From an uncultured bacterium (GTDB lineage Bacteria > Desulfobacterota > GWC2-55-46), in the NCBI GenBank assembly GCA_905339405.1, contig CAJPGC010000022.1, positions 1 through 64,000 of the forward strand: 64,000 nucleotides of DNA. The letters are read 5' to 3'. The notes below the pieces were generated by a model. That model ran no database searches, was not told the origin of the DNA, and worked only from the letters and a program-made list of their open reading frames with translations. Within the stretch, counting starts at the first letter, position 1, and the number at the start of each line of letters is the position of its first letter. Position numbers and translations under genes: made by a program. Shown here one piece after another: positions 16,918-37,873 of this stretch.

Positions 16918-16946
16918 TTTTTAGCATTGAACAAAATAAATGTCAA
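16918..16946 (-). promoter_or_regulatory. tracrRNA promoter
   Basis: TTGACA (16941-16946), a 17-bp spacer, then TAAAAA (16918-16923) with an extended TG one base before it (TGCTAAAAA). The predicted start lies at about 16911, at the first base of the anti-repeat. It overlaps the region just upstream of the cas9 ribosome-binding site. Confidence 0.8.
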
Positions 16947-16966
16947 GTATGTTCGGGAGGCATAGT

Positions 16967-19891: not shown

Positions 19892-20771
19892 AAGAATAGT
19901 CGAGATATCAGGCCCTGCTAGGCTCTGTATGGACAGGGGGCAGATGGTGGTGGAGAGGTCAGGCATTGACCCTGAAGCCGTGCCTGTTGAAGACATCGGC
20001 GTTCTCATACTCGATCATCCCGGCATAGTTCATACTCAAGGGCTGCTGGCTGCCTGCATTGAAAATAATGCGGCGGTGCTGGTCTGCGACTCAAAGCACC
20101 TGCCTGCCGCAATGTTCTTGCCGTTTAAAGCAAACAGCCTGCATGCCAAGGTGGTGGCCTTACAAAGCACTGTTTCTGTTCCTATCAAAAAACGTTTATG
20201 GAAAAGCATTGTACGGGCAAAGATAATCGGCCAAGCTGAGACTTTAAGGCTTGCTGGCAAGGACCCTGGTCCTGTTTTTAAATTTGCTGAACGGGTCCGG
20301 TCGGGAGACCCGGATAATATCGAGGCTCAGGTTGCGAGGTTTTACTGGCAAAGACTTTTCGGCCCTGTTTTCAGAAGAGACCGCGAGGAAAAGAGTGTGA
20401 ACGCGTTTCTTAATTACGGTTATGCCGTTGTGCGTGGCGCTATAGCGCGGGCAATTGTCGGCGCTGGACTGCATCCTTCTTTGGGGATACATCATCACAA
20501 CCAATATAATAATTTCTGTCTCGCAGATGATCTACTTGAACCATTCAGGCCAATAGTTGACCTTGTGGCGTACTCTATTGTAGAACCGGAGAATAATGCC
20601 GCAGAGCTCGATAAGGAGAGCCGCAGAAAACTACTCGAAATTCTGAATTATACATCTAAGATAGGTGGACGCACGCTGCCCCTTATGAGCGCTTTTCAAT
20701 CTTATGCCGCAAGTATCAGGGCGGTAATGGCGGGAGAAGCTATGGAGCCAGAGATACCGGCGTTGTCATGA
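19884..20771 (+). CDS. cas1: CRISPR integrase Cas1
   Basis: Metal-dependent integrase subunit that inserts new spacers with Cas2. 295 aa, type II form. Probable catalytic residues are E147 (DNIEAQVARFYW), the His cluster near 203-205 (LGIHHHNQYN) and D216 (LADDLLEPFRP). The start codon overlaps the cas9 stop by 8 nt, and its own stop overlaps cas2 by 4 nt, so cas9-cas1-cas2 is a coupled operon. No csn2 or cas4 is present, as expected for II-C. Confidence 0.97.
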   Translation: MIKRIVEISGPARLCMDRGQMVVERSGIDPEAVPVEDIGVLILDHPGIVHTQGLLAACIENNAAVLVCDSKHLPAAMFLPFKANSLHAKVVALQSTVSVPIKKRLWKSIVRAKIIGQAETLRLAGKDPGPVFKFAERVRSGDPDNIEAQVARFYWQRLFGPVFRRDREEKSVNAFLNYGYAVVRGAIARAIVGAGLHPSLGIHHHNQYNNFCLADDLLEPFRPIVDLVAYSIVEPENNAAELDKESRRKLLEILNYTSKIGGRTLPLMSAFQSYAASIRAVMAGEAMEPEIPALS

Positions 20772-21144: not shown

Positions 21145-21711
21145 ATTTTACCAAACTAATGCCTGCCCGCAAACCACAACCAAAACACTGTCCGGCAGAT
21201 TGCGGGTCATATTTTACCAAACTAATGCCTGCCCGCAAACCACAACTGAAGAGCGTCGGGGGCGACCTGTCCATCTACATTTTACCAAACTAATGCCTGC
21301 CCGCAAACCACAACTGGAAGTCAAGTGTAACGGCAGGGTACTACATTTTACCAAACTAATGCCTGCCCGCAAACCACAACACATGCCCTTGGTGGTCAAG
21401 GAAGACCCTGATTTTACCAAACTAATGCCTGCCCGCAAACCACAACCGAGGGCCTCGACAACAGCAAGGTCGAGAAATTTTACCAAACTAATGCCTGCCC
21501 GCAAACCACAACCAAAAGCTTACCGTCAATGATGTCGTACCATTTTACCAAACTAATGCCTGCCCGCAAACCACAACTACTCGCGCGCGTCGTCCTCGTT
21601 CCCGGTGATTTTACCAAACTAATGCCTGCCCGCAAACCACAACCTTTTGCGCGTGGTGTCCATGTGTGACCGCAAATTTTACCAAACTAATGCCTGCCCG
21701 CAAACCACAAC
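21145..21711 (-). CRISPR. type II-C CRISPR array, 9 repeats and 8 spacers
   Basis: Nine identical 36-bp repeats start at 21145, 21211, 21279, 21345, 21411, 21477, 21542, 21608 and 21676. Spacers are 30, 32, 30, 30, 30, 29, 30 and 32 bp, all different. The crRNA strand is the minus strand, where each repeat begins GTTGTGGTTTGCGGGCAGGC; this orientation is fixed by pairing to the tracrRNA. In that orientation each repeat ends TGGTAAAAT, an extended -10 box. Every spacer could therefore have its own promoter, as in Neisseria II-C arrays. No repeat is degenerate. The leader side should be 21712 and above, where the repeat 5' end faces. Confidence 0.98.
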
Positions 21712-21732
21712 GCTTTTGGCATTATCTTTTTA

Positions 21733-25035: not shown

Positions 25036-25905
25036 TTATTTCTTTTTGCCCTTTGCGTCGTCCTTCTTTTCTTCTTTTTTCTCGTCTTTCTTCTCGTCCT
25101 TCTTGTCCTCGTCAATTACTGGCGCGGGCTGCGAGTGGCACCTGAAGCAGTCGTCGATGGGGAAGGAGACCTTCGCGTGGCAGGTCCCGCAGTACTGCCC
25201 CGATATTATCTTCATCATGTTCATCTCGGGGTTGCCGCCGTTCTTCTGCTTGAATATCGACTCGTGGCACGAGGCGCAGTCGAGCTGCTGCGTGTGCGCC
25301 TTGTGGGGGAACTTCACGTCGGGCGGGTGCGGCGAGAACTTTGTGACCGGGATTATCGTGTCCTGGTCAAGTACCTCCAGCGTACCTGTGCCGTCTGGTT
25401 TTGCAGCTGGCTTTATCTTGCCCTCGCTCACCGCCTTTGCCCAGTCCACCTTGTTGCCGAAAAAGTCCTTGGGCAGGTCCTTGAGCTTTTCGGATATGCC
25501 CTTCGCCTGCGTGAGGCCGTATGAATGGCACTTGTCGCATTCGTTCACGCCGAAGGAGGTCTTGCCGTCGTGGCAGCTGCCGCAGAACTTCCCGGCCGCT
25601 ATGTCGGCCTGCATTATCTCGGTCGTGCGCCCCTTGAGGCTGAAGCCCAGGTCAGTGTGGCAGGCCTTGCACGTGTACTTCGACCTGTGCGTCCAGTGGG
25701 AGAAGACGACAGGCCTTGCCTCTTTCGAGCCCCGTGTGACCCTGTCCATCAGCACGTTTCCGTAGGTGTCCGGGTTCTTGGGCCTCCGGAGGTCTGTTTC
25801 CCAGGTAACGCCGCTGCCTGCGTCCGCTCCCCTGTAGAAGAAAAGGCCCGCGGTTACGGCCGCCGCCAGAATTATCGTGATGCTAAGACGCCTGTTGCTA
25901 AGCAC
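25036..25905 (-). CDS. hexahaem c-type cytochrome (two c7-like triads)
   Basis: 289 aa exported cytochrome. The N-terminal signal or anchor helix is MLSNRRLSITIILAAAVTAG. Six CxxCH haem sites fall in two groups of three: CKACH, CGSCH, CDKCH, then CASCH, CGTCH, CFRCH. Each group has the spacing of a c7-type triad, preceded by KFPHKAH- or VFSHWTH-like segments whose His can serve as distal ligand. The tail (last 30 residues) is almost entirely Lys, Asp and Glu. It is the last gene of the nine-gene electron-transfer operon and probably a periplasmic electron carrier. Confidence 0.88.
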   Translation of the reverse strand: MLSNRRLSITIILAAAVTAGLFFYRGADAGSGVTWETDLRRPKNPDTYGNVLMDRVTRGSKEARPVVFSHWTHRSKYTCKACHTDLGFSLKGRTTEIMQADIAAGKFCGSCHDGKTSFGVNECDKCHSYGLTQAKGISEKLKDLPKDFFGNKVDWAKAVSEGKIKPAAKPDGTGTLEVLDQDTIIPVTKFSPHPPDVKFPHKAHTQQLDCASCHESIFKQKNGGNPEMNMMKIISGQYCGTCHAKVSFPIDDCFRCHSQPAPVIDEDKKDEKKDEKKEEKKDDAKGKKK

Positions 25906-25987
25906 TGTGAACCTCCTTTGTATTGCGGTGAAAAACTGCTTTCCTTCCTTTTAGGCCTCCGGCGCTTCAAGCCGCCAGTGCCGCCCG

Positions 25988-26419
25988 TCAGTAACCCACG
26001 TGGCACGACTGGCAGAGCCTGAAGTAGTCGACCCTCAGCATCTTCGGGTGCCTGGTCTTCTTGTGAGGGTCGTGGCACGTGTAGCAGACCATCTCCCCGT
26101 CTTCCGTGAGCGGCAGGTTCGCCGGTATCTTAATTCTGGTCATCAGCCCCATCGGGTGCCTGGTGACCGGGTGGTTCCCTATGTTGCCGGGGTGGCACTT
26201 CACGCACGTCGAGACCGGGTCCAGGAGCAGGGCCGGGGGCTCTGCCGTATGGCAGACCGAGCACAGGCCTGCCTTGGAGTAATCGTGCGGGTTCACGTTC
26301 AGCTTTTTGGCCCCGATCTCCTCAGCGAAGCCCTCGCTTGAAGACGAGAGCGCCATGAACGCCGCGGCAACGCAGAACACCGGCACAAGAAACGCAGAAA
26401 GGGCCATTGGTTTTCTCAT
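25988..26419 (-). CDS. tetrahaem c-type cytochrome
   Basis: 143 aa with an N-terminal signal sequence ending near AEEIGAKK. Four CxxCH sites: CSVCH, CVKCH, CYTCH (in a CHDPH context) and CQSCH at the C-terminus. The CxxCHxPH pattern is typical of the doubled-CXXCH cytochrome family. Sits between the 11-haem and the hexahaem genes in the same operon. Confidence 0.85.
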   Translation of the reverse strand: MRKPMALSAFLVPVFCVAAAFMALSSSSEGFAEEIGAKKLNVNPHDYSKAGLCSVCHTAEPPALLLDPVSTCVKCHPGNIGNHPVTRHPMGLMTRIKIPANLPLTEDGEMVCYTCHDPHKKTRHPKMLRVDYFRLCQSCHVGY

Positions 26420-26441
26420 TTTACGCGTCCTTGCGCACCCG

Positions 26442-28628
26442 TCAGTTGGAACAGTCGCCTATGATGTTGCAGTTGTGGTTCTGCATGTTCCCGGTAAAGT
26501 TCGTGAAGCTGTTGTTGCAGACCTCGTCGGTCGCCGGCGTCACGGACCTGAAGGCCAGGGATACGCCCGTAAACGCCGTGGCCCTGGTGTGCGACTCCAC
26601 GCAAGCGCCGTTCATGAGCCTGTAGCCGAGCGGGTCGCTTCCAGGTACTGAGCCTGCCGCCGCGTTGCTGCCGTGGATGCCTTTCATCTGGTTGTTCACC
26701 GAATCATAAGCCCCGCCGTGGCAGGTGAGGCAGAGTATCCCGAACTTGTTGCCGTTGTTGCCGGTGGAGGCCCCGGTCTGGTAGAAGGGCGAGCCCACGC
26801 CGAGCCCGTCGACGGGGTGCGAGACCCTCGAGAAGTTCGCGTTCGGGCCGACGTAGCCCTCGTCGCCGTACACGTCCCTTCTGTGGCAATTGTAACAGAA
26901 GTTCTGGAGGGTGCCGGCGCCGGTCTCGTTCCTTCTCACAAGCCACCTTTCCTCTGAGCCGTGAGCGCCCCTGGGGTCGCTGGATACGCTTGAGGCGTGG
27001 CAGTCGGTGCAGGCCGTGGTGCTGTCGTGCGTCATGTTGTAGAAGCCTTCCCTCGTGCCGCCCGGGAAGTCGACGTACCTGAAGGTGTTCGTGAGCCCCA
27101 GGCCGTTAGCGGGCCAGTTGGCGTTCGCGTTCGAGGGCGGGGTGTTCTTTCCAACTGCGAACACGGGGTGTATGCCGAAGTTGTTTATGTTCATGTCGCC
27201 GGTCGGGTCGGACTGCAGGACGAGCGAGCCGTTGGCGTTGCCTGAGGGCACGTTGGGCGGCATCACTCCGTACGCGTAGTACGAGTGGCACTTGACGCAC
27301 AGGTAGCCTTCGAGGTTGTCCGCCCCGGGGTTCGTGGTGGTGAAGTCGACAGCGGTGTAGACGGTCGAAGCGCTCCCGGCTGCGGCCCAGGTCGGCTTCA
27401 CGCCCCAGCTGCCAAGTATGTTGGCGCCTATGATGTTGCCGTTGGGGCCGCCGATGGAGTGGCTGCCTTCCTTCGCGCCGTGGCCGTTGTGGCAGTCTGC
27501 GCACTCGGCGTGCCTGTTCGTGCCGAGGTTCGCGGCCGTCTCCCTGGCGGGCTCACCGGCCGCGCCCCTGGACGCAGAATGCAGACCGTAGGTACCCTTG
27601 ACGTCATGCTTGTACATATAGTTGAACTGCGCCTCCACGTTCTTCGAGGCGGCGTTCCCGTTGTGGCAGTTGAGGCAGGTCCACTCTTCGCCTTCGACCA
27701 CTGACGTGCCCGGGTTCGTTCCCTTCAGGAGCATCTTGCCCGAAGCGCCCTTGTGCGAGCTGTGGCAGGCCAGGCAGCTCTGAACCATCGGCGTGTCGTC
27801 CGTCCATCCGGCTGAGCCCATGTCCTCGTGCCAGGGGTTTATGCCGTTCTCGTTCCATGTGGCGGTCGCAGTCGAGTGTATGGCCGGGTTCGTGTTCCAG
27901 TACCTCTTGTCGTGGCAGGCCTGGCAGAGGCCGCCGTTCTCGAGGGAAGCTACCATGAACTTGGGGAAGACGGTCCCGTGGGGGTCGTGGCAGCTCGTGC
28001 ACTGTATCTTCCCCGAGCCGTCCAGCTTCACCTCTGCCGGGAGCGTGAGGTTGTCTTTTACTTCCGTGTTCGACGGATACGAAAGCGCGTACTCGAACGA
28101 TATCGGGTGGTCGTCCTTGAGGTCAGTGCCGATGTAGGAAGTCGAGGCGGAGCCTATTTTCCCGGCGGCCACGCCTGGGCCGGTCACCGCAAGAGTGGCC
28201 GGTGTGCCGCCCTTGCCCGGCGCGTTGAGGACCGAGCCTATGGCTATCGTGCCGTCGTGGCACGCGAGGCAAAGCTTGGATGCGCCCGAAGGCTGGCCGA
28301 GGGAAGGCGCGTTGGGGCTCAGCGTCGCGGCAAGCGTCTGGCTTTCGTATACGTTGTACGTCGAGCCCGTCTCCTGCTTGTTCCAGATGGGCCCGGCAGG
28401 GTCCGAGTTGTGCGGCGTATGGCAGAAGACGCATATCTCCGTCGTCTCCGAGGACTTTATCTCGGCGCTGGAAAGGGAACTGAAGTTGTGCTTGGTCGCG
28501 GCCACGGCCGCCAGCGAGCTGCCCGCGGCCAAGAGGGAGAAGCCCAGGCCTAATACGCCCAAAGCCGCTATCGGCAGCTTGCGGCGTTCGCGGCGGCTTT
28601 TTTTCGCGTTTCTCCTGTCCATCTTCAC
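26442..28628 (-). CDS. large multihaem cytochrome, 11 CxxCH plus one degenerate site
   Basis: 728 aa. A basic N-terminus and hydrophobic segment (residues 19-45) form a signal peptide. Eleven CxxCH sites are visible in order: CVFCH, CLACH, CTSCH, CQACH, CLACH, CLNCH, CADCH, CVKCH, CTDCH, CYNCH and CLTCH. Several are in doubled-CXXCH context (CVFCHTPHNS, CTSCHDPHG). A twelfth motif near the C-terminus reads CVESH, with the second Cys replaced by Ser, so it cannot bind haem in the normal way. Four more C-terminal Cys occur without CxxCH. The start is GTG at 28628 or ATG at 28622. It probably functions at or beyond the outer membrane; localisation is inferred. Confidence 0.88.
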   Translation of the reverse strand: MKMDRRNAKKSRRERRKLPIAALGVLGLGFSLLAAGSSLAAVAATKHNFSSLSSAEIKSSETTEICVFCHTPHNSDPAGPIWNKQETGSTYNVYESQTLAATLSPNAPSLGQPSGASKLCLACHDGTIAIGSVLNAPGKGGTPATLAVTGPGVAAGKIGSASTSYIGTDLKDDHPISFEYALSYPSNTEVKDNLTLPAEVKLDGSGKIQCTSCHDPHGTVFPKFMVASLENGGLCQACHDKRYWNTNPAIHSTATATWNENGINPWHEDMGSAGWTDDTPMVQSCLACHSSHKGASGKMLLKGTNPGTSVVEGEEWTCLNCHNGNAASKNVEAQFNYMYKHDVKGTYGLHSASRGAAGEPARETAANLGTNRHAECADCHNGHGAKEGSHSIGGPNGNIIGANILGSWGVKPTWAAAGSASTVYTAVDFTTTNPGADNLEGYLCVKCHSYYAYGVMPPNVPSGNANGSLVLQSDPTGDMNINNFGIHPVFAVGKNTPPSNANANWPANGLGLTNTFRYVDFPGGTREGFYNMTHDSTTACTDCHASSVSSDPRGAHGSEERWLVRRNETGAGTLQNFCYNCHRRDVYGDEGYVGPNANFSRVSHPVDGLGVGSPFYQTGASTGNNGNKFGILCLTCHGGAYDSVNNQMKGIHGSNAAAGSVPGSDPLGYRLMNGACVESHTRATAFTGVSLAFRSVTPATDEVCNNSFTNFTGNMQNHNCNIIGDCSN

Positions 28629-28652
28629 CGTCCTTGGGCGTATGCCTGATGC

Positions 28653-29735
28653 TTAAGAGCCTTCACCGAGGTATTCGAATACCTGAACCCTGCTGTTGTA
28701 TGAATCGCCTACGTAGATCTTGTTGCCGTCGTCGACGAAAAGCCCGCTCGGGAGCCAGAACCTGCCCGCGGTCTTTCCGATGGAGCCGAAGTTAAGAAGG
28801 AAGTTGCCCTGCCTGTCGAATATCTGGACGGCGTCGAAAAGGGCGTCGGCGACGTATATGTTGCCGTCCCTGTCGACCGCTATGCCTTTCGGCCTGCCGA
28901 AATCCCCTGTACCGTCGCCGTGGCGGCCAAAAGAGGAGTTGAAGCGGCCGTCCTTGTCGAATATCTGGACCCTGAAGTTCATCGAGTCTACGACGTAGAG
29001 CATGCCGTCCCTGTCGACGGTCAGGTCGACAGGGTAGTTGAACTCCCCTTCCAGGACGCCGAGTTTGCCGAAGGAGCCGGTCAGCTTGCCGTCAAGCGTA
29101 TAGATGTTGACAGTGTGGCTGGCGGTGTCCGACACGTACACGAGCCCTGCGGCCCTGTTGATGGCTATGCCGGTCGGCCTCGAGCCCGCCTTGAAGCTCT
29201 TTACGTACTTCCCTTTCGAGCTGAAGACAAAGACCTTGCCTGCACCGGAGTCCGTGACAAATACCCTGTTCTCGGAGTCGATCGCGGCGGCTATCGGGGT
29301 CAGGAACTCTTCCTTGCCCGGCTTGTCCATGAAAAAATAATCTTTTTTCTTTATGTCGTATACGTGCACCCTCCTTAAGGCGGTGTCGGCCACTATGAGC
29401 CTTCCAAGGCCGTCCACCGCTACTCCGTAGGGTTTTACGATGTCGTCGTTGTCCGCCCCGAGGATGAACTCGGATAGCTTTTTGAAAAAACCCTGGTTGG
29501 CGCCGATGTCTGCGGGCCTGGTAATGGCGCTGATATAGGATATCTTCGCGGGTTCCGGCGGAGAGGGCCATATGAGCGGCGTCTGCGGGGTAAGAAGCGC
29601 GGGGCTGTCTTTGACCGGCGCGGAAGAGCAGCTCAAAAGGCCGAAAGCAAGGCACAGAGACGCGGCAGCGGTCCCCAGGCGGGAAGGGCTGCCGCGTTTA
29701 CCGGCGTTTACGGTTCCATGTCCATCGGGTCTCAT
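28653..29735 (-). CDS. NHL-repeat beta-propeller lipoprotein
   Basis: 360 aa. The N-terminus has a lipoprotein signal with lipobox LLSC near residue 35. Six NHL-type blades follow, each reading like KPYGVAVDGLGRLIVADT or RPKGIAVDRDGNIYVADA, enough for one closed propeller. No cysteine pair or haem site is present. It lies between two cytochrome genes, so it may serve as an assembly scaffold or docking surface for them on the periplasmic or outer face. This role is inferred from context. Confidence 0.85.
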   Translation of the reverse strand: MRPDGHGTVNAGKRGSPSRLGTAAASLCLAFGLLSCSSAPVKDSPALLTPQTPLIWPSPPEPAKISYISAITRPADIGANQGFFKKLSEFILGADNDDIVKPYGVAVDGLGRLIVADTALRRVHVYDIKKKDYFFMDKPGKEEFLTPIAAAIDSENRVFVTDSGAGKVFVFSSKGKYVKSFKAGSRPTGIAINRAAGLVYVSDTASHTVNIYTLDGKLTGSFGKLGVLEGEFNYPVDLTVDRDGMLYVVDSMNFRVQIFDKDGRFNSSFGRHGDGTGDFGRPKGIAVDRDGNIYVADALFDAVQIFDRQGNFLLNFGSIGKTAGRFWLPSGLFVDDGNKIYVGDSYNSRVQVFEYLGEGS

Positions 29736-29745
29736 CGAAAGGGAC

Positions 29746-30363
29746 CTATTTCCTGTGGCAGTACTGGCAAATGTCGAGGCCCGCCGACCTTAACCTCATG
29801 CTGTAGTCAGCCCCCCAGTCAGGCCTGCCGGAAAGGAGCCCTCTTTCATGGGGGTTGTGGCAGGTGGCGCATATTATCTTGCCGGACTTGGGGTCCAGGG
29901 GCAATAACATCGTTATTTCCTTGAGAGAGAGCTTCATGTTGTAGGTCACGACCTTCGAGGGGACCACCATGTGGTCCGGCGCGCTGTAGCCGCTCATCGT
30001 GACGCTTATGCCCTCGCTGCCCGGGTGCTTCTTGACGGTATGGCAATTCCTGCAGAGCTGGTCCGGGTTGTCGGGGTAGTACAGGGTCACGTCCTTTATT
30101 GATTTGGCCTTTACGTCGGGCGTCTCCTTGTGGCAGACGACGCATGTGCCCCAGAGCACCTCCCCGGTGTCTCCTATCTGGTTGTGCGGGTTGATGGCTG
30201 AAAGGAGGGCCTCGCCTCTTTCATAGGGAGGGGGAGCCGGAGCTTGAACGGCGGCCTTGGGAGGCTCGGCTGCCTTTGTTTCCGCGGCGCTTGCGCCGGT
30301 GGAGGCCAGCGCCAGGCCTCCTATCATGATGAGCGCGGTTATTATGTGTCTTCTTGTTGGCAT
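29746..30363 (-). CDS. tetrahaem c-type cytochrome
   Basis: 205 aa. The signal peptide covers about 1-26 (ends ASTGASA). Four CxxCH sites: CVVCH, CRNCH, CATCH (CHNPH context) and CQYCH two residues from the end. The ATG at 30363 has GAAGG 8 nt upstream and gives MPTRRHIITALIM. A start at 30393 would be 10 codons longer without an SD. Adjacent to the NHL gene by 10 bp. Confidence 0.87.
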   Translation of the reverse strand: MPTRRHIITALIMIGGLALASTGASAAETKAAEPPKAAVQAPAPPPYERGEALLSAINPHNQIGDTGEVLWGTCVVCHKETPDVKAKSIKDVTLYYPDNPDQLCRNCHTVKKHPGSEGISVTMSGYSAPDHMVVPSKVVTYNMKLSLKEITMLLPLDPKSGKIICATCHNPHERGLLSGRPDWGADYSMRLRSAGLDICQYCHRK

Positions 30364-30414
30364 TGGACTACCTTCTTTGTTGACAGCCCGCAAGGGCGTC
30401 CGTTGTTGTGGCTC

Positions 30415-31548
30415 TTATCTTGCCTCGAATGCGTAGACGGAGCCGTCTTCAGAGCCGATGTATACCGCGCCCTCCAGCACCGCCGGAGACGACTGGACGC
30501 TGCCTTCGGTCATGTACTTCCATGCCATCGTGCCCGACCTGGTGTCGAGCGCGTACAGGGCGCCGTCGTCGCAGCCGACGAAGATGAAGCCGTTGGCGCC
30601 GGCCACTGGAGAGGAGTTTATCTCGTCAGGGAGCTTGTAGTCCGCCGTCTCCGCGCCGTCCTTCCTGTTGAAGGCCTTCAGGTGGCCGCTCTTGAGCGCG
30701 ACGTACAACTTGTCGGATGTCACCGACGGAGTGGCGTACATGATGTCGTTGCCGAGTTTCTTTCTCCATTGTACCTTGCCCGTCTTGGCGTCGATGGAAT
30801 AGAGCGTTCTGTTGTAGGAGGAGATGTAAACGGTCCCGTCCTTGACGATAGGCGAGGAGTAGACGGCCGACTCGAACCTCACGGCCCAGTTTCTGCCGCC
30901 GCTTTTCACGGACGCCGAGTAGAGTATGCCGTTCTTGCCCGCGTAGTAGACCGAACCGTCGGCGTAGGCGGGGGAAGAGTATATGCCGCTGTATTTTTCA
31001 TAATCAGGGAGCTTGTTCCGCCATTCCCTCGCGCCGGTCTTCGCGTTCAGGGCATAGAGGTACAGGTCCTTGGAGCCGATGAGCACCTTGCCGTCGGCCA
31101 CGACAGGGGAGGTCACGACCGGGCCTTCAGTCTCGAATTTCCATAGGAGCTTGCCGGTGGCGGCTTCAAGGGCGTATACAAGGCCGTCCCTCGAGCCGAA
31201 GTAGACGGTGCCTTCGGAGACGGCCGGGGACGAGTATATCTCGCCGCCTGTTTTGAACTTCCAGGCCGTCTCGCCTGTCACGGCGTCTATGGCGTAAAGG
31301 TTGGTGTCATACGAGCCCACGAACACCTTCCCCTTGACGACTGCGGGGGACGAGTATACCGGGCCGCCGGTGCGCGCGCGCCATTTGAGGGAAAGGGGCG
31401 GGGCGGGCGCTTTTTCGGCGTAGGTCAGGTGCTTTTCGTTTTTCAGGAACATCGGCCAGTCGGCCAGGGCGCTCCCGGCCGGGATGAGGGCCAGTGAAAG
31501 GGTTGCGGCCGCAAGGGCCTTGCTGATGGTTGATTTCGCCAGTTGCAT
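30415..31548 (-). CDS. PQQ-like beta-propeller protein, exported
   Basis: 377 aa. A Sec signal peptide ends near ALA29. At least seven blades carry the pattern IYSSPAV...VYFGSRDGLVYALEAATGKLLWKF, as in BamB and PQQ-dehydrogenase folds. No cofactor-binding dehydrogenase motifs or catalytic residues are apparent, so it resembles the BamB-type structural propellers, not an enzyme. Nine bp after the HAMP protein gene. With the NHL protein it gives the operon two different propellers. Confidence 0.86.
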   Translation of the reverse strand: MQLAKSTISKALAAATLSLALIPAGSALADWPMFLKNEKHLTYAEKAPAPPLSLKWRARTGGPVYSSPAVVKGKVFVGSYDTNLYAIDAVTGETAWKFKTGGEIYSSPAVSEGTVYFGSRDGLVYALEAATGKLLWKFETEGPVVTSPVVADGKVLIGSKDLYLYALNAKTGAREWRNKLPDYEKYSGIYSSPAYADGSVYYAGKNGILYSASVKSGGRNWAVRFESAVYSSPIVKDGTVYISSYNRTLYSIDAKTGKVQWRKKLGNDIMYATPSVTSDKLYVALKSGHLKAFNRKDGAETADYKLPDEINSSPVAGANGFIFVGCDDGALYALDTRSGTMAWKYMTEGSVQSSPAVLEGAVYIGSEDGSVYAFEAR

Positions 31549-31556
31549 AGTTCCTC

Positions 31557-32144
31557 TCAGACCTTGAACTTTGAGATTACGGACGAGATGCCTTCTCTCG
31601 CCCCGGTTATGGCCTCAAGGGCGCTTTCAAGTTCGGCCCTGGCCGCCTGCGGCTTTTCAAGCCGCCCAGATTCCTTATCGAGTATTGCAGCTGATTTCTT
31701 TAATGAACTGAAGGCGGCCCCCAGTGAACGGGACATGTTGTTGAAGGCGGCTGGCAGCTCCCCAGGCATGTTTTTTGAAAGGTCTTTTGAAAAATCCCCC
31801 CTGGACCTGTCCTGTATGGCGTCTCTGAACTGCTGGAGTGGCAACTCTATGCGGCGCGTGAGGAAGAACCCGATGACAGCCGAGACGGCAAGTATCAACG
31901 GTATTGTGACCGCGCTGAGTTTCAGGAGGATAGGGACCGCGATCTCGGAAGTGGTCCTTATCCTTATATGAATTTTATATAACTCCTCATTAAGTTCCCT
32001 GTCAATTAAAAAATAAGAGACCAGGAGGTTGGCGGCAAGCCCCAGGAAGACCGCAAGGGAGAACCCGGCGATGAACTTTCCCTGGAGCCCCCTGTTGATG
32101 AAAAATTTTCTTCTCCTGAAAACCGAGCGGCCTTTCGCTTCCAT
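31557..32144 (-). CDS. membrane protein with HAMP-like linker, no output domain (2)
   Basis: 195 aa. TM1 covers about 24-46 and TM2 about 74-96, with a short periplasmic loop between (RELNEELYKIHIRIRTTSEI). A HAMP-like region follows (RRIELPLQQFRDAIQDRSRGDFS), then a helical C-terminus. No kinase, methyl-accepting or GGDEF domain is present. Same layout as the protein at 33304-33906 in the same operon, though weakly similar in sequence. It may sense or transmit a signal from periplasmic cytochromes. Confidence 0.65.
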   Translation of the reverse strand: MEAKGRSVFRRRKFFINRGLQGKFIAGFSLAVFLGLAANLLVSYFLIDRELNEELYKIHIRIRTTSEIAVPILLKLSAVTIPLILAVSAVIGFFLTRRIELPLQQFRDAIQDRSRGDFSKDLSKNMPGELPAAFNNMSRSLGAAFSSLKKSAAILDKESGRLEKPQAARAELESALEAITGAREGISSVISKFKV

Positions 32145-32230
32145 CGCTCCTCCAAGAAAGGCCCCCCCTTTAAGAGGAGCCTATCATAATATGCTGGTAT
32201 TAAACCTGAATTAAGTCCGAGTTAAATTCC

Positions 32231-32359
32231 ACTCAGATTGCTGAAAAAGTACCATCTGCGCCTGGAGTCATCGTCGCGCGTAATTGCGGCGTACAAAAAG
32301 TACGCCTCATTCCCCGCTCCTCGACTCCTAGCATCTGGAACTTTTTGAGCAATCTGAGT
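32231..32359. repeat. 129-bp palindromic element
   Basis: ACTCAGATTGCTGAAAAAGT (32231-32250) and its near-perfect complement (32340-32359, one mismatch) enclose a further imperfect palindrome centred on GGCGTAC/GTACGCC. It lies inside the cytochrome operon, between the 7-haem gene and the second HAMP protein. Confidence 0.75.
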
Positions 32360-32457
32360 TAAATGTGCTGAAAACCCATAGCGAGCGTAAAGCGAGCGAA
32401 TATAAATCGAGATTTCCACTGGTTTTGAAGCTCCCTGCGGCTTGCCGCCGGGAGCTT

Positions 32458-32494
32458 CAAAAAGTACCATTTGCGTCTGTAGTCATCGTCCGGC
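32458..32494 (+). repeat. partial copy of the palindrome arm
   Basis: AAAAAGTACCATTTGCGTC and the bases that follow repeat the left interior of the 129-bp palindrome (32244-32277) with few changes. It ends at the 7-haem cytochrome stop. The DNA between (32360-32457) contains a GGAGCTTC/GAAGCTCC hairpin and no gene. Confidence 0.6.
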
Positions 32495-32500
32495 GCGCTC

Positions 32501-33307
32501 CTATTTGACGTGGCAGCCCAGGCAGAGCGCGCTGCCTTCGTTGCTCATGACCAGTTCGTTGTGGCGCTTCGAGTACGGGTTATGGCAGCTCCCGCAGCCG
32601 ACCATGCCGTCGAAGAGCTTGATTTGTTTCGGCATTTTCTCTGTCGCCCTGTAAGCCCCCCTGTATCTGCGGCGCGTCTCGAAGTAGGATATCCCTATGG
32701 GGTGGCTGAGGCCTATCGAGTTGCTGCTGTGAAAGAGCTCTCTTTTCAGTGTCAGGTTCTCGACGAGGCTGTCCCTGGCGGTCACGGCGTCATGGCAGGC
32801 CAGGCACTTTATGGACAGTTCGTCAAGCTCTTCGCCCGGCTCCCATCCGGCGTTTTTTCTGGTTGAGGATTCTCCTACGTGGGCCGAGCCGATAGCGACC
32901 CTGTGGAGCTGCTCGTCCATGTCGCCGTGGCATATGACGCAGAAACCCTCTCCGCTGGCCGCAACCCTCAGGTGGAAGCCGCCGTAGCCCCGCTTGTGCG
33001 CGGTATGGCAGGTCAGGCAGGTGACGTCGCCCTTCCAGTCAAGCGGCATCGACCCCGGCACCTCCATCGAAGGCTTCATGTCCACCGGGTGTGAAAGCTC
33101 CTGCTCGCTGCCGTGGCAGGAGGAGCACATCCTCGTGACGTCCCTGGAGAAGGTCATCTGCTCGTCCCCCGACGGCTGCGTGATGTGGCATTCCAGGCAC
33201 CTGTTTTCGAAGTCGTGGTAGCTCGTCCACTGTGACGAGTACAGGAGGGCCGCTCCGCCGGCCGCGATGAAGAGGGCCAGGAGGCCTGTTTTAAGGCGTT
33301 TTCTCAC
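32501..33307 (-). CDS. heptahaem c-type cytochrome
   Basis: 268 aa. The N-terminal hydrophobic segment (8-25) is a signal or anchor. Seven CxxCH sites: CLECH, CSSCH, CLTCH, CVICH, CLACH, CGSCH and CLGCH. Free His residues between motifs can serve as distal ligands. The start overlaps the stop of the first HAMP protein (ATGA), so the two are translationally coupled. It is the first cytochrome of the operon. Confidence 0.88.
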   Translation of the reverse strand: MRKRLKTGLLALFIAAGGAALLYSSQWTSYHDFENRCLECHITQPSGDEQMTFSRDVTRMCSSCHGSEQELSHPVDMKPSMEVPGSMPLDWKGDVTCLTCHTAHKRGYGGFHLRVAASGEGFCVICHGDMDEQLHRVAIGSAHVGESSTRKNAGWEPGEELDELSIKCLACHDAVTARDSLVENLTLKRELFHSSNSIGLSHPIGISYFETRRRYRGAYRATEKMPKQIKLFDGMVGCGSCHNPYSKRHNELVMSNEGSALCLGCHVK

Positions 33308-33906
33308 TCTTTTACCTTTATGTTCGCCGTTACCCCGGTCATCTTTTCGATCGCGGCCACGAGGCGTCCGGCTGCTTTGTCAAGCTCGTCTTCCGGGGGG
33401 TCTTTCATGTTGAGGAGGGCGGCAAGGGCGCTTTCGGCGGCCTCGAGTTCTTTTGCTGCCTCAGAAACCGAGCGCGCGGTGTGGTTCAAAGACCTCACGA
33501 GGCCGTTCAGCTCGTCGGCCAAAACCGAAAGCTGGTCCATGCCCCTGAAGCGCGTGCTGACGGTAAGGTCGCCGGAGGCGAGCGCGTCGAGGTTTTTCTC
33601 GAGCCTGTACAGGGGGCCCGCTATCCTGTGCGAGAACAGGACAGAGATGGCCGCGATGGCCGCCGTTACGAGGGCGAGCACCAGGATTGAGTAGGACGAG
33701 GCGAACATCAGCGGGAGGACCCTTATCTTGAGGTCGTGGATGGTGTATATGGCTTCTGCGTAGGAGCCGCCGAGCTCCCTTTCCAGCGTGAGGAAGAGGA
33801 GCAGCACGAGGGCCGCCCCCCCGAGGAGCGTAAAGAGGCAGAGCTTGAGGCCGAACCTGATTTTAAAGGCTCTTTCGAGGAGCCGCGAGGGACCGGTCAT
33901 CTTCAT
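33304..33906 (-). CDS. membrane protein with HAMP domain, no output domain (1)
   Basis: 200 aa. TM1 covers about 20-42 and TM2 about 68-92, separated by a 25-residue loop (ERELGGSYAEAIYTIHDLK). A recognisable HAMP domain follows (HRIAGPLYRLEKNLDALASGDL, about 93-142), then about 55 residues of coiled coil. It lacks any kinase, MCP-signalling or cyclase module. As first gene of the cytochrome operon, with ATG at 33906, it may relay redox or occupancy state to another protein. This is inference. Confidence 0.72.
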   Translation of the reverse strand: MKMTGPSRLLERAFKIRFGLKLCLFTLLGGAALVLLLFLTLERELGGSYAEAIYTIHDLKIRVLPLMFASSYSILVLALVTAAIAAISVLFSHRIAGPLYRLEKNLDALASGDLTVSTRFRGMDQLSVLADELNGLVRSLNHTARSVSEAAKELEAAESALAALLNMKDPPEDELDKAAGRLVAAIEKMTGVTANIKVKE

Positions 33907-34001: not shown

Positions 34002-34030
34002 ATTATATCTCAGCGCAGAAAAATTGTGAA
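34002..34030 (-). promoter_or_regulatory. promoter of the cytochrome operon
   Basis: TTCACA (34025-34030), a 17-bp spacer, then a perfect TATAAT (34002-34007) on the minus strand. The predicted start is about 90 nt upstream of the first gene. It is back-to-back with the hemE promoter: the two -35 boxes are 26 bp apart. Confidence 0.7.
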
Positions 34031-34056: not shown

Positions 34057-34085
34057 TTGATAAAATGAGCCGTTATGTCTATAAT
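34057..34085 (+). promoter_or_regulatory. promoter of hemE-hemH-hemY
   Basis: TTGATA (34057-34062), a 17-bp spacer, then a perfect TATAAT (34080-34085). The predicted start near 34092 leaves a leader of about 130 nt. No riboswitch consensus was recognised in the leader. Confidence 0.72.
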
Positions 34086-34222: not shown

Positions 34223-35254
34223 ATGTCGAACGACTCATTCTTGAAGGCGTGCCGGAGGGAAAAAACCGGGTTCACCCCCGTGTGGCTCATGCGCCAGGCA
34301 GGCCGTTACATGAAGGAATACATGGCCATAAGGGAGAAGCACTCCTTTCTCGAGATGTGCAGGAACCCAGAGCTTGCCTGCGAGGTGACTCTCCAGCCCA
34401 TAAAGGCGTTCGACCTCGACGCCGCGATAATATTCGCCGACATCCTGCTGCCGCTTGACGGCATGGGCATAAACCTCGAGTTCACCAAGGGCGAAGGCCC
34501 CTCGATAAGCAACCCCGTGCGCACGCGCAAGGACATAGACGCTGTGAAGGTAATAAAGCCCGAGCAGGACGTGCCCTATCTCCTCGAGGCCATAAAGATG
34601 GTCAAGAAGGAACTCAATGGCAAGGTGCCTCTCATAGGCTTCTCCGGCGCTCCCTTCACCCTTGCGAGCTACATCATAGAGGGCGAGGGCTCCAAGAACT
34701 ACATAAACACCAAGAAGCTCATGTATTCCGACCCGGAGGGCTGGAAAGTCCTGATGGACAAGATCTCCGACGTGGTCATAGTCTACCTCGAGGCTCAGAT
34801 AGACGCCGGAGCGCAGGTGGTCCAGCTCTTTGACAGCTGGGTAGGCTGCCTCGGCCCCGACGATTTCAAGAAGTTTGCGCTGCCGTACACTAAGCGGATA
34901 ATAGATACCGTAAGCAAAAAAGGCGTGCCGGTCATAAACTTCGGCACCAACACCGGCACCTACCTCGACCTCGTGGCCCAGGGCGGCGGCGACGTCATAG
35001 GCGTGGACTGGAAGGTAAGGCTGGACAACGCCTGGAAGACAATAGGCTACGACAAGGCCATACAGGGCAACCTCGACCCGGTCGTGCTCTTCGGCCCGGT
35101 CTCCGAGATACGGAAGAGGGTAAAAGAGGTCATCGACATGGCAGGCGGACGGCCCGGGCACATCTTCAACCTGGGGCACGGCATCATCCTCGGCACCCCG
35201 GTCGACAACGTCAGGGCGGTAGTAGACGCCGTGCACGAGTTCAGCGGAAAGTAA
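34223..35254 (+). CDS. hemE: uroporphyrinogen decarboxylase
   Basis: Decarboxylates uroporphyrinogen III to coproporphyrinogen III in haem synthesis. 343 aa, normal length. The N-terminal signature PVWLMRQAGRYMKEY and the catalytic Asp region (DLDAAIIFADILLPLDGMG) are present, as are INFGTNTGT and the C-terminal NLGHGI motif. AGGAGA precedes the ATG. First gene of a haem operon that diverges from the multihaem cytochrome operon. Confidence 0.97.
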   Translation: MSNDSFLKACRREKTGFTPVWLMRQAGRYMKEYMAIREKHSFLEMCRNPELACEVTLQPIKAFDLDAAIIFADILLPLDGMGINLEFTKGEGPSISNPVRTRKDIDAVKVIKPEQDVPYLLEAIKMVKKELNGKVPLIGFSGAPFTLASYIIEGEGSKNYINTKKLMYSDPEGWKVLMDKISDVVIVYLEAQIDAGAQVVQLFDSWVGCLGPDDFKKFALPYTKRIIDTVSKKGVPVINFGTNTGTYLDLVAQGGGDVIGVDWKVRLDNAWKTIGYDKAIQGNLDPVVLFGPVSEIRKRVKEVIDMAGGRPGHIFNLGHGIILGTPVDNVRAVVDAVHEFSGK

Positions 35255-35294
35255 CGCCGGAAGCGGCGTTCGTAAAAACCTTCAAGGAGACGAG

Positions 35295-36224
35295 ATGAGC
35301 GGCAAACCTGTAAAGGGAATATTCCTGATGGCCTTCGGCGGGGCTGATTCCATCGAGAGCGTCGAGCCTTTCGTAAAGAACGTTTTGAAAGGCAGGATAC
35401 CGACCCCCGAGCTCGTGGAAAAGGCCAGGGAAAGGTACAGGCTCATCGGCGGCAGGTCGCCTCTTCTTGATATAACCAACGCGCAGGCAAAGGCAATAGC
35501 CGACCTCCTCAACTCCGACCCTGAAGCGCGGTACGAGTACAGGCCTTTCGTCGGCATGCGCTACTGGCACCCCTACATAGCCGAGACCGTCGGCAGGATG
35601 AAGGCCGAGGGCGTTAACGAGGCTATAGCGGTCATCATGTCTCCTTTCATCTCGCTCGTGGCAACAGGCGCCTACATCGAAGACCTCGAGGCGGCAGTGG
35701 GCCTCCACGGCGGGCCGTTCGTGGAGATGCTCGGCAGCTTTCACATGGAGAGGGCCTTCAGGGACCTCGTGGCCGATAATATCGAAAAAGAGCTCGCGGG
35801 CGCCGACAGGAAGGATACTCTCATAATTTTCAGCTCGCACAGCCTTCCCGCCGTGGCCGTGGAAGGCGACCCGTATGAGATGATAGTAAGGCAGGCCTCT
35901 GATTTCGTGATGGAAAAGCTAGGCAAGGCCGATTTCAAGGTGGCCTTCCAGAGCAAGGGCGCGGGCCCCAGGCAGTGGATAGGCCCCGAGACTGAGTCCG
36001 TCATCGAGGAGGCCGCTAAAAAAGGAAAGAAGCGGGTCATCGTGGTCCCCATCGGCTTTGCTGCCGACCACGTAGAGACCCTCTATGACATCGACATACT
36101 GTTCAAGGGCAAGGCTGCCGAAAACGGGCTCGAGTTCAGGCGCACGCCCTCTCTTAATACCGACCCCAGGTTCATAGCCCTCCTTGCCGGCATGTTCAAG
36201 AAGGTGGCGGAAAAGAAGCAATGA
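35295..36224 (+). CDS. hemH: ferrochelatase
   Basis: Inserts Fe(II) into protoporphyrin IX. 309 aa. Conserved elements are FGGADSIESVEPFVKN near the N-terminus, the His in FSSHSLPA, the Pro/Gly-rich segment SKGAGPRQWIGPETE, and the late GFAADHVETLYDID. AAGGAGAC lies before the ATG. Overlaps hemY by 4 nt (ATGA). Confidence 0.95.
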   Translation: MSGKPVKGIFLMAFGGADSIESVEPFVKNVLKGRIPTPELVEKARERYRLIGGRSPLLDITNAQAKAIADLLNSDPEARYEYRPFVGMRYWHPYIAETVGRMKAEGVNEAIAVIMSPFISLVATGAYIEDLEAAVGLHGGPFVEMLGSFHMERAFRDLVADNIEKELAGADRKDTLIIFSSHSLPAVAVEGDPYEMIVRQASDFVMEKLGKADFKVAFQSKGAGPRQWIGPETESVIEEAAKKGKKRVIVVPIGFAADHVETLYDIDILFKGKAAENGLEFRRTPSLNTDPRFIALLAGMFKKVAEKKQ

Positions 36225-37657
36225 AAAGGGTAGTAATAATCGGAGGCGGCATAGCGGGGCTTTCGGCGGCCTGGAGCCTCCGGGAGCATTGCCCCGGGGC
36301 GCCCTTCGAGATTGTTTTGCTTGAGCGCAATGACAGGTTCGGCGGGAACATCAGGACCGAGCGTTCAGACGGCTTTCTCATAGAGGGCGGCCCCGACTGT
36401 TTCCTTTCTGAGAAGCCCTGGGCCATGGAATTGAGCCGCAGGCTTGGGCTTGCTGACAAGTTCCTCCCCACTAACGACAAGAACAGAAAGACCTTCGTCC
36501 TTTCCGGCGGCTCCCTCCATGTACTTCCGGAGGGCGTCATTCTCATGATACCCACGAAGATACTCCCGCTTGCCACCTCGAGCCTCATCTCATGGCCCGG
36601 TAAGGCGCGCATGGCCATGGAGCTTTTCATCCCGAAGAAGAAGGATTCGAAAGACGAGAGCCTTGGAGATTTCGTCAGGAGGCGTCTTGGAAAAGAGGCC
36701 CTCGACAAGATAGCCGAGCCGCTCGTGGCCGGCGTTCACGCCGGAGACCCGGAGACCATGTCCGTACGGGCGAGCTTCCCGAAGTTCGTCCAGCTCGAGG
36801 AGGAAAGCGGCAGCCTCATAAGGGGCATGGTCAGGAAGATGGCCTCCATGCACAAGGCGAAAAAGAGCGCGCCTTCTCCTACGGGGGAGCAAAAGCAGAG
36901 GGTCACGATGTTCATGACCCTGAAGGACGGCCTCTCAGAGCTCATCGATACGCTCTCCGCGAGGCTCTCGAAGATGGAGAACACGGTCTTGAGAAAGGGC
37001 GCGCCGGTCTCCTCGCTGGAAAAAAAGGACGGCCGCTACACAGTGAGGCTCGAAGGCGGAGAGGCTATAGACGCCGACGCCGTCATTGTGGCTGCTCCCG
37101 CGTGGGCCGCTTCGAACCTCCTGAAGGGGGTAGACGGCGCGCTTTCCGAAAAGCTCCTTACGATACCCTACGTCTCAACCGCTACCGTCTCCATCGCCTT
37201 CAAGAAAAAGGACGTCAAGCACCCCTTGAACGGCTTCGGCTTTGTCGTGCCGAAGGTCGAAAAGAGGAGGATAATGGCCGCGACCTGGACTTCGGTCAAG
37301 TTCGCCCACAGGGCCCCTGACGACTCGGTCCTCATAAGGTGCTTCGTCGGCGGGTCGAAGAACGCCGAGCTTGTCGGCCTCGACGACGCGGCAATGGTCA
37401 GGATGGTAAGGGAGGAACTCGGCGACATAATGGGCATAAAGGCCGAGCCCCTACTCGCCAGGGTGTTCCGCTTCAAGTCCTCAATGCCCCAGTACACGAT
37501 AGGCCACGAGGAGCGCATAGGCTGGATAGACGAGCGGGTCGCCTCCATCAACGGACTATATCTTACAGGCAGCGCATACCACGGCATCGGCATAAGCGAC
37601 AGCATAAGGTACAGCGAGTCCGTGGCGAAAAAGATTTTGCACCAGTTTCAGAAGTGA
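36221..37657 (+). CDS. hemY: protoporphyrinogen oxidase, HemY type
   Basis: FAD enzyme that oxidises protoporphyrinogen IX (or coproporphyrinogen) by six electrons. 478 aa. Dinucleotide-binding VVIIGGGIAGLSAAWSL at the N-terminus, GGPDCFLSEKPWAMEL, and the C-terminal GLYLTGSAYHGIGISDSI where FAD is closed off. Gene order hemE-hemH-hemY (also called hemG in some annotations) is common and gives the late steps of haem synthesis. It would supply haem to the adjoining cytochromes. Confidence 0.93.
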   Translation: MKRVVIIGGGIAGLSAAWSLREHCPGAPFEIVLLERNDRFGGNIRTERSDGFLIEGGPDCFLSEKPWAMELSRRLGLADKFLPTNDKNRKTFVLSGGSLHVLPEGVILMIPTKILPLATSSLISWPGKARMAMELFIPKKKDSKDESLGDFVRRRLGKEALDKIAEPLVAGVHAGDPETMSVRASFPKFVQLEEESGSLIRGMVRKMASMHKAKKSAPSPTGEQKQRVTMFMTLKDGLSELIDTLSARLSKMENTVLRKGAPVSSLEKKDGRYTVRLEGGEAIDADAVIVAAPAWAASNLLKGVDGALSEKLLTIPYVSTATVSIAFKKKDVKHPLNGFGFVVPKVEKRRIMAATWTSVKFAHRAPDDSVLIRCFVGGSKNAELVGLDDAAMVRMVREELGDIMGIKAEPLLARVFRFKSSMPQYTIGHEERIGWIDERVASINGLYLTGSAYHGIGISDSIRYSESVAKKILHQFQK

Positions 37658-37873
37658 GCCTGTAACTCCTTGAAAACAAGCCGTTTCCGTCCGCCTGTTT
37701 TTTCATGATCCCTTTCCTTTTCAGTGTAATAGTTCTCGCCAAAGCACCTAACCGTATATAACTTCAAGTCTTTCCCCGTTCATCCGATAAGAAGACTGAC
37801 CCTGCCCGCGCACACTCATGCGTGCGGCATGGCGGACTTTTTCGTAGTCCATAAATCCCCGCGAGGCTCATCA

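What the first reader, a model, noticed from the sequence alone, without database searches (positions are those of the whole stretch)
25036..33906. Nine-gene electron-transfer operon: 32 haem sites, two propellers, two HAMP proteins
Five cytochromes carry 7, 4, 11, 4 and 6 CxxCH motifs, interleaved with a PQQ-like propeller, an NHL-propeller lipoprotein and two short HAMP membrane proteins. No menaquinol oxidase of CymA/NrfH/bc type, no outer-membrane barrel and no terminal reductase could be recognised among them. The set does not match named conduits (MtrCAB, OmcS/OmcZ-type, PCC porin-cytochromes) as I know them. The propellers could act as docking or assembly scaffolds for an exported haem wire.
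Basis: partly seen in the sequence, partly recalled or inferred. Interest (0 to 1): 0.8.

Follow-up and report, generated by a model that had tools for sequence, protein, structure and literature searches.

The report
Half of an OmcE-nanowire companion system
These nine genes are one half of a conserved two-part gene set found wherever certain bacteria also carry OmcE-type electricity-conducting haem filaments, and they probably help build those filaments and feed electrons into them.

Summary
In detail: nine minus-strand genes (25036-33906), with 7, 4, 11, 4 and 6 CxxCH motifs in the cytochromes, two propellers and two short HAMP-like membrane proteins. First, residues 27-241 of the 11-haem protein are an OmcE domain (PDB 7TFS, E=2e-22), with all four haem sites and four distal histidines. 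Second, the rest of the system sits elsewhere in the same genome: contig C14 carries a trihaem lipoprotein, a second NHL lipoprotein, an OmcE filament subunit, a prolyl isomerase and a predicted outer-membrane barrel. In a same-class genome (G054) that set directly precedes HAMP-7-haem-HAMP-PQQ-4-haem. In ten other Desulfobacterota families one cluster reads OmcE, NHL, pentahaem lipoprotein, barrel, NHL, 11-haem. Best reading: the OmcE counterpart of Geobacter's osc (omcS-companion) assembly system, with the 11-haem protein as the likely wire foot. It is a new variant of a known kind; the mechanism is inferred and untested. Structure predictions failed. Electron entry from the quinone pool remains unidentified.

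The parts
33304..33906 (-). A: HAMP1, short membrane protein (2 TM + HAMP + helical tail, no output domain)
   Evidence: Pfam HAMP E=1.5e-4; two hydrophobic segments; conserved in 17-row alignment with invariant H93, G97, P98, R101, R121, D124, N134
32501..33307 (-). B: heptahaem cytochrome with an N-terminal hydrophobic anchor
   Evidence: 7 CxxCH and 7 further conserved His in 18 rows; Paired_CXXCH; no PF03264 match; only weak, partial NrfH model match, 24.8 bits against a cut-off of 134
31557..32144 (-). C: HAMP2, short membrane protein; conserved R11 R12, Q21, F24, Y44, H59
   Evidence: Alignment of 17 rows; HAMP regions of NarQ/WalK models; no Pfam match of its own
30415..31548 (-). D: exported PQQ/BamB-like beta-propeller
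   Evidence: PQQ_2 2.4e-55; TIGR03300 BamB 206.6 bits, below its cut-off of 285.2; seen only in this class among the loci read
29746..30393 (-). E: exported tetrahaem cytochrome (likely start at 30363)
   Evidence: 4 CxxCH; start with Shine-Dalgarno-like AAGGTAG upstream of ATG; weak NrfB match
28653..29735 (-). F: NHL-propeller lipoprotein (NHLb)
   Evidence: NHL 1.1e-35; lipobox LLSC; homologous propeller immediately precedes the 11-haem gene in nearly all loci seen
26442..28628 (-). G: 11-haem protein = OmcE-type tetrahaem domain (res 27-241) + C-terminal heptahaem part
   Evidence: PDB 7TFS OmcE E=2.3e-22, 9YUQ 2e-20; profile 1.8e-41; 11 haem sites and 14 further conserved His in 15 rows from many families; separate OmcE-domain lineage
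25988..26419 (-). H: small exported tetrahaem cytochrome
   Evidence: 4 CxxCH; Paired_CXXCH 3e-9; conserved in synteny
25036..25905 (-). I: hexahaem cytochrome made of two c7-type trihaem domains, Lys/Glu-rich tail
   Evidence: TIGR04257 3.8e-36, 2 stretches; PDB 3OV0 4.7e-36 and 3OUE 9.2e-20, cytochrome c family proteins
34002..34030 (-). Promoter-like site (TTCACA-17-TATAAT) upstream of A, divergent from a similar site (34057-34085 +) before hemE
   Evidence: 11 of 12 consensus matches; consensus match only

Best explanation
The nine genes are one half of an OmcE-companion system, an apparatus that assembles OmcE-type tetrahaem nanowires and connects them to the cell. SHOWN by sequence: the 11-haem protein carries a complete OmcE domain; the organism encodes four free OmcE-type subunits; one of these lies in a second locus (contig C14) with a prolyl isomerase, a second NHL lipoprotein, a trihaem lipoprotein and a predicted outer-membrane barrel; the front of the window operon directly follows that locus in G054, and the shared core forms one cluster in ten other families. 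INFERRED: HAMP1, the anchored 7-haem protein and HAMP2 form an inner-membrane module that passes (or senses) electrons; small cytochromes E, H and I carry electrons across the periplasm; the barrel with lipoproteins lets cytochromes through the outer membrane; the isomerase and NHL propellers fold, hold or space the wire subunits; the 11-haem protein is the foot of the wire, its OmcE domain docking on the filament and its heptahaem part meeting the periplasmic or barrel side. Confidence is about 0.75 for membership in an OmcE-wire system and about 0.4 for the wire-foot role.
For: Synteny of all nine genes in 18 genomes. 11-haem N-terminus matches OmcE 7TFS at 2.3e-22 and 1.8e-41 as a profile, keeping OmcE's pattern of 4 haem His + 4 distal His. 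Four free OmcE-type proteins in the same genome. C14 locus: trihaem lipoprotein-NHL-OmcE-PPIase-1h-2h-...-barrel; the same locus in other genomes including the single-contig G008. G054 (same class): that set runs directly into HAMP1-7h, then HAMP2-PQQ-4h. Co-occurrence: 7-haem homologue in 23 of 395 phylum genomes, all 23 OmcE-domain-positive, against 24 of the other 372; barrel against 7-haem in 40 relatives 21/0/4/15; G009 (98% complete, same family) lacks 7-haem, barrel and OmcE together. Core cluster OmcE-NHLa-pentahaem lipoprotein-barrel-NHLb-11-haem in ten other families. OmcE domains of 11-haem proteins form one lineage apart from free OmcE (97/96, one long-branch exception). osc of Geobacter is proposed to use the same kinds of part: OscH folding, OscE-G secretion, OscD morphology (PMC13194489).
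Against: No expression, localisation or filament data. The HAMP1-7h-HAMP2 module is not always beside an OmcE core: in f92, f73 and f41 it lies elsewhere, and many OmcE-positive genomes (including Geobacter-like G334 and G119) have no full-length 7-haem match. G034 has D-I without a detected A-C module or barrel. D, E, H and I were not seen in the loci read outside this class, so their link to the wire rests on synteny here. The barrel is assigned by weak matches (PF13505 below cut-off; no PDB hit). OmcE positives in the co-occurrence test include the 11-haem proteins; one genome (G233) has only that type. Genomes are related, so P values overstate independence. Both structure models were unusable.
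Confidence: 0.65

Rival explanations
1. The 11-haem protein is itself a filament subunit: the operon makes its own larger nanowire and the free OmcE proteins are separate wires.
For: It has a signal peptide and a complete OmcE domain with all eight haem-ligand His conserved; it is encoded with propellers and small cytochromes.
Against: Its OmcE domain belongs to a lineage separate from all filament-type OmcE including 7TFS and 9YUQ; a free OmcE is usually encoded a few kb away or elsewhere in the same genome; in Geobacter-like G334 the same region is split into a 4-haem and a 7-haem gene, as expected for an adaptor as well as for a subunit.
Confidence: 0.15
2. The HAMP1-7-haem-HAMP2 module is a redox sensor that tells the cell about the state of the wire or periplasm, rather than part of the electron path.
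For: HAMP domains usually relay signals; two-component regulators lie beside several of these clusters (L125, L134, L162, L070) and beside the isolated module in L123/L124.
Against: Neither HAMP protein has an output domain; the module sits inside or beside a structural cytochrome cluster in many families; all 7 haems and 7 other His are conserved, more than a simple sensor needs.
Confidence: 0.2
3. The operon is a self-standing periplasmic respiratory chain to a soluble or periplasmic acceptor, unrelated to nanowires.
For: The window holds no filament subunit of its own and no barrel; I_6h has c7-type periplasmic domains.
Against: OmcE domain in the 11-haem protein, complete co-occurrence with OmcE-domain genes, physical joining of the front half with the C14 set in G054; no recognisable terminal reductase in the nine genes.
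Confidence: 0.1
4. It is a direct orthologue of the Geobacter osc (omcS-companion) operon.
For: Same kinds of part: propeller, prolyl isomerase, outer-membrane channel, multihaem cytochromes (osc-like clusters read in G334 and G119).
Against: Subunit is OmcE-type tetrahaem, not an OmcS-type hexahaem; the osc-like cluster's large barrel-like protein gives no blastp match to our barrels at 1e-4, and its isomerase and propellers match only weakly.
Confidence: 0.05

Closest known systems
osc (omcS-companion) operon of Geobacter sulfurreducens (Shen et al. 2025, Cell Chem Biol, doi 10.1016/j.chembiol.2024.12.013; read only through PMC13194489)
   Same: A nanowire cytochrome with companion genes for folding (OscH), secretion (OscE-G) and wire morphology (OscD), plus extra multihaem cytochromes; osc-like clusters in G334/G119 hold an OmcS-like hexahaem gene, NHL propellers, isomerase and 26- and 16-haem genes.
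   Different: Ours serves OmcE-type tetrahaem subunits, has an OmcE-domain 11-haem protein and a HAMP-7-haem-HAMP module, is split over two loci, and its barrel is not detectably related to the osc-like one.
OmcE filament (PDB 7TFS) and the related entry 9YUQ
   Same: 11-haem N-terminal domain and the four free proteins share OmcE homology, 4 CxxCH and 4 distal His.
   Different: The 11-haem protein adds a heptahaem C-terminal part and belongs to a distinct lineage.
Porin-cytochrome conduits (MtrCAB, Pcc, OetABI)
   Same: Multihaem cytochromes with an outer-membrane barrel in the same genome.
   Different: No barrel in the window operon; the barrel found has no PDB homologue by sequence; propellers, isomerase and OmcE dominate the set.
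12-haem c7-type cytochrome (PDB 3OV0/3OUE) and TIGR04257 trihaem domain
   Same: I_6h consists of two such trihaem domains.
   Different: Six haems instead of twelve (the number twelve is from memory); operon context differs.
NapC/NrfH/CymA quinol dehydrogenases
   Same: B has a single N-terminal anchor followed by haem domains.
   Different: No PF03264 match in operon or genome; seven haems with own distal His.

Membership tests
OmcE-type filament cytochrome (11-haem N-terminal domain and C14 protein) | Sequence homology to OmcE 7TFS over the tetrahaem domain | tested here: met
   2.3e-22 for the 11-haem protein, 1.2e-17 for the C14 protein, 1.8e-41 for the 11-haem profile
OmcE-type filament cytochrome (11-haem N-terminal domain and C14 protein) | Four CxxCH sites and four conserved distal His in the same order | tested here: met
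   A5 and A9 alignments
OmcE-type filament cytochrome (11-haem N-terminal domain and C14 protein) | Polymerises into an extracellular filament | not testable with these tools
   needs cryo-EM
osc (omcS-companion) system | OmcS-type hexahaem wire subunit | tested here: not met
   Subunits in the genome's C14, C7, C13, C49 loci are OmcE-type tetrahaem proteins; the rest of the genome was not searched with OmcS
osc (omcS-companion) system | Prolyl isomerase chaperone (OscH) | tested here: met
   SurA-like PPIC isomerase in the C14 locus; a shorter protein than the one in the osc-like cluster
osc (omcS-companion) system | Beta-propeller companion (OscD) | tested here: met
   NHL propellers F and C14; orthology to OscD not shown
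osc (omcS-companion) system | OscE-G secretion proteins | tested here: inconclusive
   A predicted barrel is present in C14, but with no blastp match to the osc-like barrel of G334/G119; no authenticated Osc sequences available
Porin-cytochrome conduit (MtrCAB/Pcc) | Large outer-membrane barrel encoded with periplasmic and extracellular multihaem cytochromes | tested here: inconclusive
   None in the window; a trans-encoded barrel candidate (PF13505 below cut-off), no PDB match
NapC/NrfH/CymA quinol dehydrogenase | PF03264 domain | tested here: not met
   No match in B or in the genome (E. coli control positive)
OetABI conduit (PMC10553843) | OetI barrel with OetA and OetB | not tested
   no authenticated Oet sequences at hand; paper read
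BamB | TIGR03300 equivalog cut-off | tested here: not met
   206.6 bits against 285.2

The most novel reading that the evidence does not exclude
A second, independent nanowire-assembly apparatus, dedicated to OmcE-type wires and spread over at least 13 families of Desulfobacterota, in which a paralogous OmcE domain fused to a heptahaem part forms a purpose-built wire foot that plugs the filament into an outer-membrane barrel, with NHL lipoproteins as docking scaffolds and a HAMP-7-haem-HAMP complex as its inner-membrane partner.
Probability: 0.4. Interest if true: 0.82.

Novelty: new variant of a known kind. Interest (0 to 1): 0.62.

Why it matters
How cytochrome nanowires are exported, anchored and charged is described as unresolved in a recent review (PMC12307469). 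Of the wires I could read about, only OmcS is reported to have a companion assembly operon. A conserved companion set for OmcE wires, with a fusion protein that looks like a wire terminus and a fixed list of partners, gives named genes to delete, co-express or image, and shows that wire assembly machines may come in more than one type. It also shows that such systems can be split over distant loci, so single-locus searches miss them.

Tried and rejected
Structure prediction of the 11-haem protein and the 7-haem protein with five-row alignments failed (mean pLDDT 24.9 and 29.8), so no fold search was run. PDB search with the barrel profile found nothing. Own-genome search for the cytochrome b561 found in the variants of G058, G127 and G401 gave no match, without a positive control. 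The key papers on osc (10.1016/j.chembiol.2024.12.013) and on the OmcE structure (PMC9357133) are not held. Rejected: MtrCAB-type conduit, CymA/NrfH identity for B, true BamB for D, osc orthology, chance occurrence of haem motifs. The 82-aa ORF 32222-32470 between B and C has no family match and was not treated as a gene. My own interim note of '>20 genera' for the full nine-gene order was wrong: the count is 18 genomes in 10 genera and 2 families.
Full report
OBSERVATION. Nine minus-strand ORFs fill 25036-33906. In order of transcription they are A (HAMP-like), B (7 CxxCH), C (HAMP-like), D (PQQ/BamB-like propeller), E (4), F (NHL-propeller lipoprotein), G (11), H (4), I (6). The 32 motifs are far beyond chance (residue shuffles: mean 0.13, maximum 3). 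Most genes are within 24 bp of each other or overlap; B-C (356 bp) and H-I (82 bp) are wider, so a single transcript is likely but not shown. A promoter-like site (11 of 12) precedes A and faces a similar one before the haem-biosynthesis genes on the other strand. The HAMP label is fair for A (1.5e-4, just under the cut-off) and weak for C.

CONSERVATION. Using B as an anchor in 59 relatives and reading the neighbourhoods, all nine genes occur in the same order in 18 other genomes (10 genera, families f1 and f7), down to about 40-60% identity per gene, with the haem numbers 7/4/11/4/6 kept in nearly all; further genomes show parts cut by contig ends. Named close relatives are uncultured Deltaproteobacteria such as GWA2_54_12 and GWA2_55_10. 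No further gene is consistently inside the cluster; in f1 it is often flanked by hemE/hemH/hemG-like genes (divergent) and a DHH/tRNA-nucleotidyltransferase-like gene (names from reading the sequences).

WHAT THE LARGE CYTOCHROME IS. Residues 27-241 of the 11-haem protein match OmcE, the tetrahaem nanowire subunit of Geobacter (PDB 7TFS, 2.3e-22), and 9YUQ (2e-20); a 15-row profile reaches 1.8e-41 and finds only weak partial matches for the C-terminal part. The eleven haem sites are conserved in rows from many families, and the OmcE part keeps the same four haem His and four other His as free OmcE proteins. OmcE wires are reported to share a haem ligand between neighbouring subunits (PMC12954529), so a complete OmcE domain is compatible with docking on a wire end (inference). 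A tree of OmcE domains separates the 11-haem type from free OmcE (97/96), with one long-branch exception, across more than ten families; window-class and Geobacter-like members lie on the same side. In Geobacter-like G334 the same region is two adjacent genes of 4 and 7 haems, downstream of an NHL gene and a prolyl isomerase.

THE MISSING HALF. The genome encodes four free OmcE-type proteins, on contigs C7, C13, C14 and C49. The C14 copy lies in a same-strand set: trihaem lipoprotein, NHL protein, OmcE, SurA-like prolyl isomerase, monohaem cytochrome, dihaem FGE-domain protein, a membrane protein and a 646-aa predicted outer-membrane barrel. The same locus was read in G008, G005, G023, G035 and G007, in part where contigs end. 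In G008, a single-contig genome, it is about 0.54 Mb from the nine-gene locus, so the split is not an assembly effect. In G054 (same class, another family) the two halves are joined: trihaem lipoprotein-NHL-OmcE-isomerase-1h-2h-...-barrel-HAMP1-7h, and further on HAMP2-PQQ-4h. In ten other families (f20, f21, f30, f46, f54, f68, f69, f70, f108, f110) one cluster reads OmcE, NHLa, a small (mostly pentahaem) lipoprotein, barrel, NHLb, 11-haem, some with HAMP1-7h-HAMP2 inserted and with local changes of order.

CO-OCCURRENCE. Of 395 genomes drawn from the phylum, 23 carry a full-length B homologue and all 23 are OmcE-domain-positive, against 24 of the other 372. One of the 23 (G233) has only the 11-haem type; relatedness inflates the P value, but the positives span 11 families. 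Among 40 relatives, the barrel is present in all 21 genomes with B and in 4 without, and those 4 are incomplete or fragmented assemblies. G009, 98% complete and in the same family, lacks B, barrel and OmcE together.

VARIANTS. In G058 and G048 (same class) the HAMP/PQQ/NHL genes keep company with 24- and 38-haem cytochromes and a cytochrome b561-like gene instead of the OmcE-domain protein. Propellers and membrane modules are therefore re-used with other large cytochromes. The HAMP1-7h-HAMP2 module can also stand apart from the OmcE core (f92, f73, f41), and in f92 it sits beside two-component genes, which keeps a sensor role open.

MECHANISM. Shown by sequence: domain content, gene company and co-occurrence. 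Inferred: electrons enter the periplasm through an unidentified donor and B (no NapC/NrfH protein in the genome); E, H and I relay them; the 11-haem protein collects them on its heptahaem part and hands them to an OmcE wire docked on its OmcE domain; NHL lipoproteins hold the partners at the outer membrane; isomerase and barrel fold and export subunits. The osc operon of Geobacter is proposed to use the same kinds of part for OmcS wires: OscH folding, OscE-G secretion, OscD morphology (PMC13194489; the original paper is not held, and that OscD is a propeller and OscH a prolyl isomerase is from my memory of its abstract). An osc-like cluster was read in G334 and G119 and compared: the barrels give no match and the isomerases and propellers only weak ones, so this looks like the same kind of machine, not the same family.

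LIMITS. Structure predictions failed, the barrel assignment is weak, and nothing here shows expression or polymerisation. No paper naming an OmcE companion set was found in the searches made, but the library lacks the two most relevant papers, so priority cannot be settled.

Noticed in passing
window 16940-20771 (+) and 21145-21729: A compact Cas9 (983 aa, HNH and RuvC domains) followed by Cas1 and a CRISPR array of nine 36-nt repeats at about 66-nt spacing.
   Followed up: partly
window 34223-37657 (+): Apparent haem-biosynthesis genes (hemE-, hemH- and hemG-like) divergent from the cytochrome operon, with facing promoter-like sites; the arrangement recurs in many genomes of the family.
   Followed up: partly
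L003-L006, L118-L121 (contigs C7, C14, C13, C49 of the window's genome): Four OmcE-type tetrahaem proteins in one 2.65-Mb genome; the C13 and C14 copies are 94% identical, and only the C14 copy has companion genes.
   Followed up: partly
L077 11777-16696 and L070 13482-16604: Cytochromes with 38 and 24 CxxCH motifs directly after an NHL propeller, in genomes of the same class; L077 also has an isomerase followed by 25- and 16-haem genes like the osc-like cluster of G334.
   Followed up: no
L118 13611-14645: A formylglycine-generating-enzyme-like (FGE-sulfatase) domain protein with two CxxCH motifs sits in the OmcE locus and is conserved in it; role unknown.
   Followed up: no
L123, L124: HAMP1-7-haem-HAMP2 module without a cytochrome cluster, next to a conserved protein of about 465 aa and large two-component genes.
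   Followed up: no
window 50570-52882 (+): 770-aa exported protein with a PEP-CTERM motif.
   Followed up: no
window 37829-40048 (+): Cache-HAMP-GAF-GGDEF diguanylate cyclase downstream of the haem genes.
   Followed up: no
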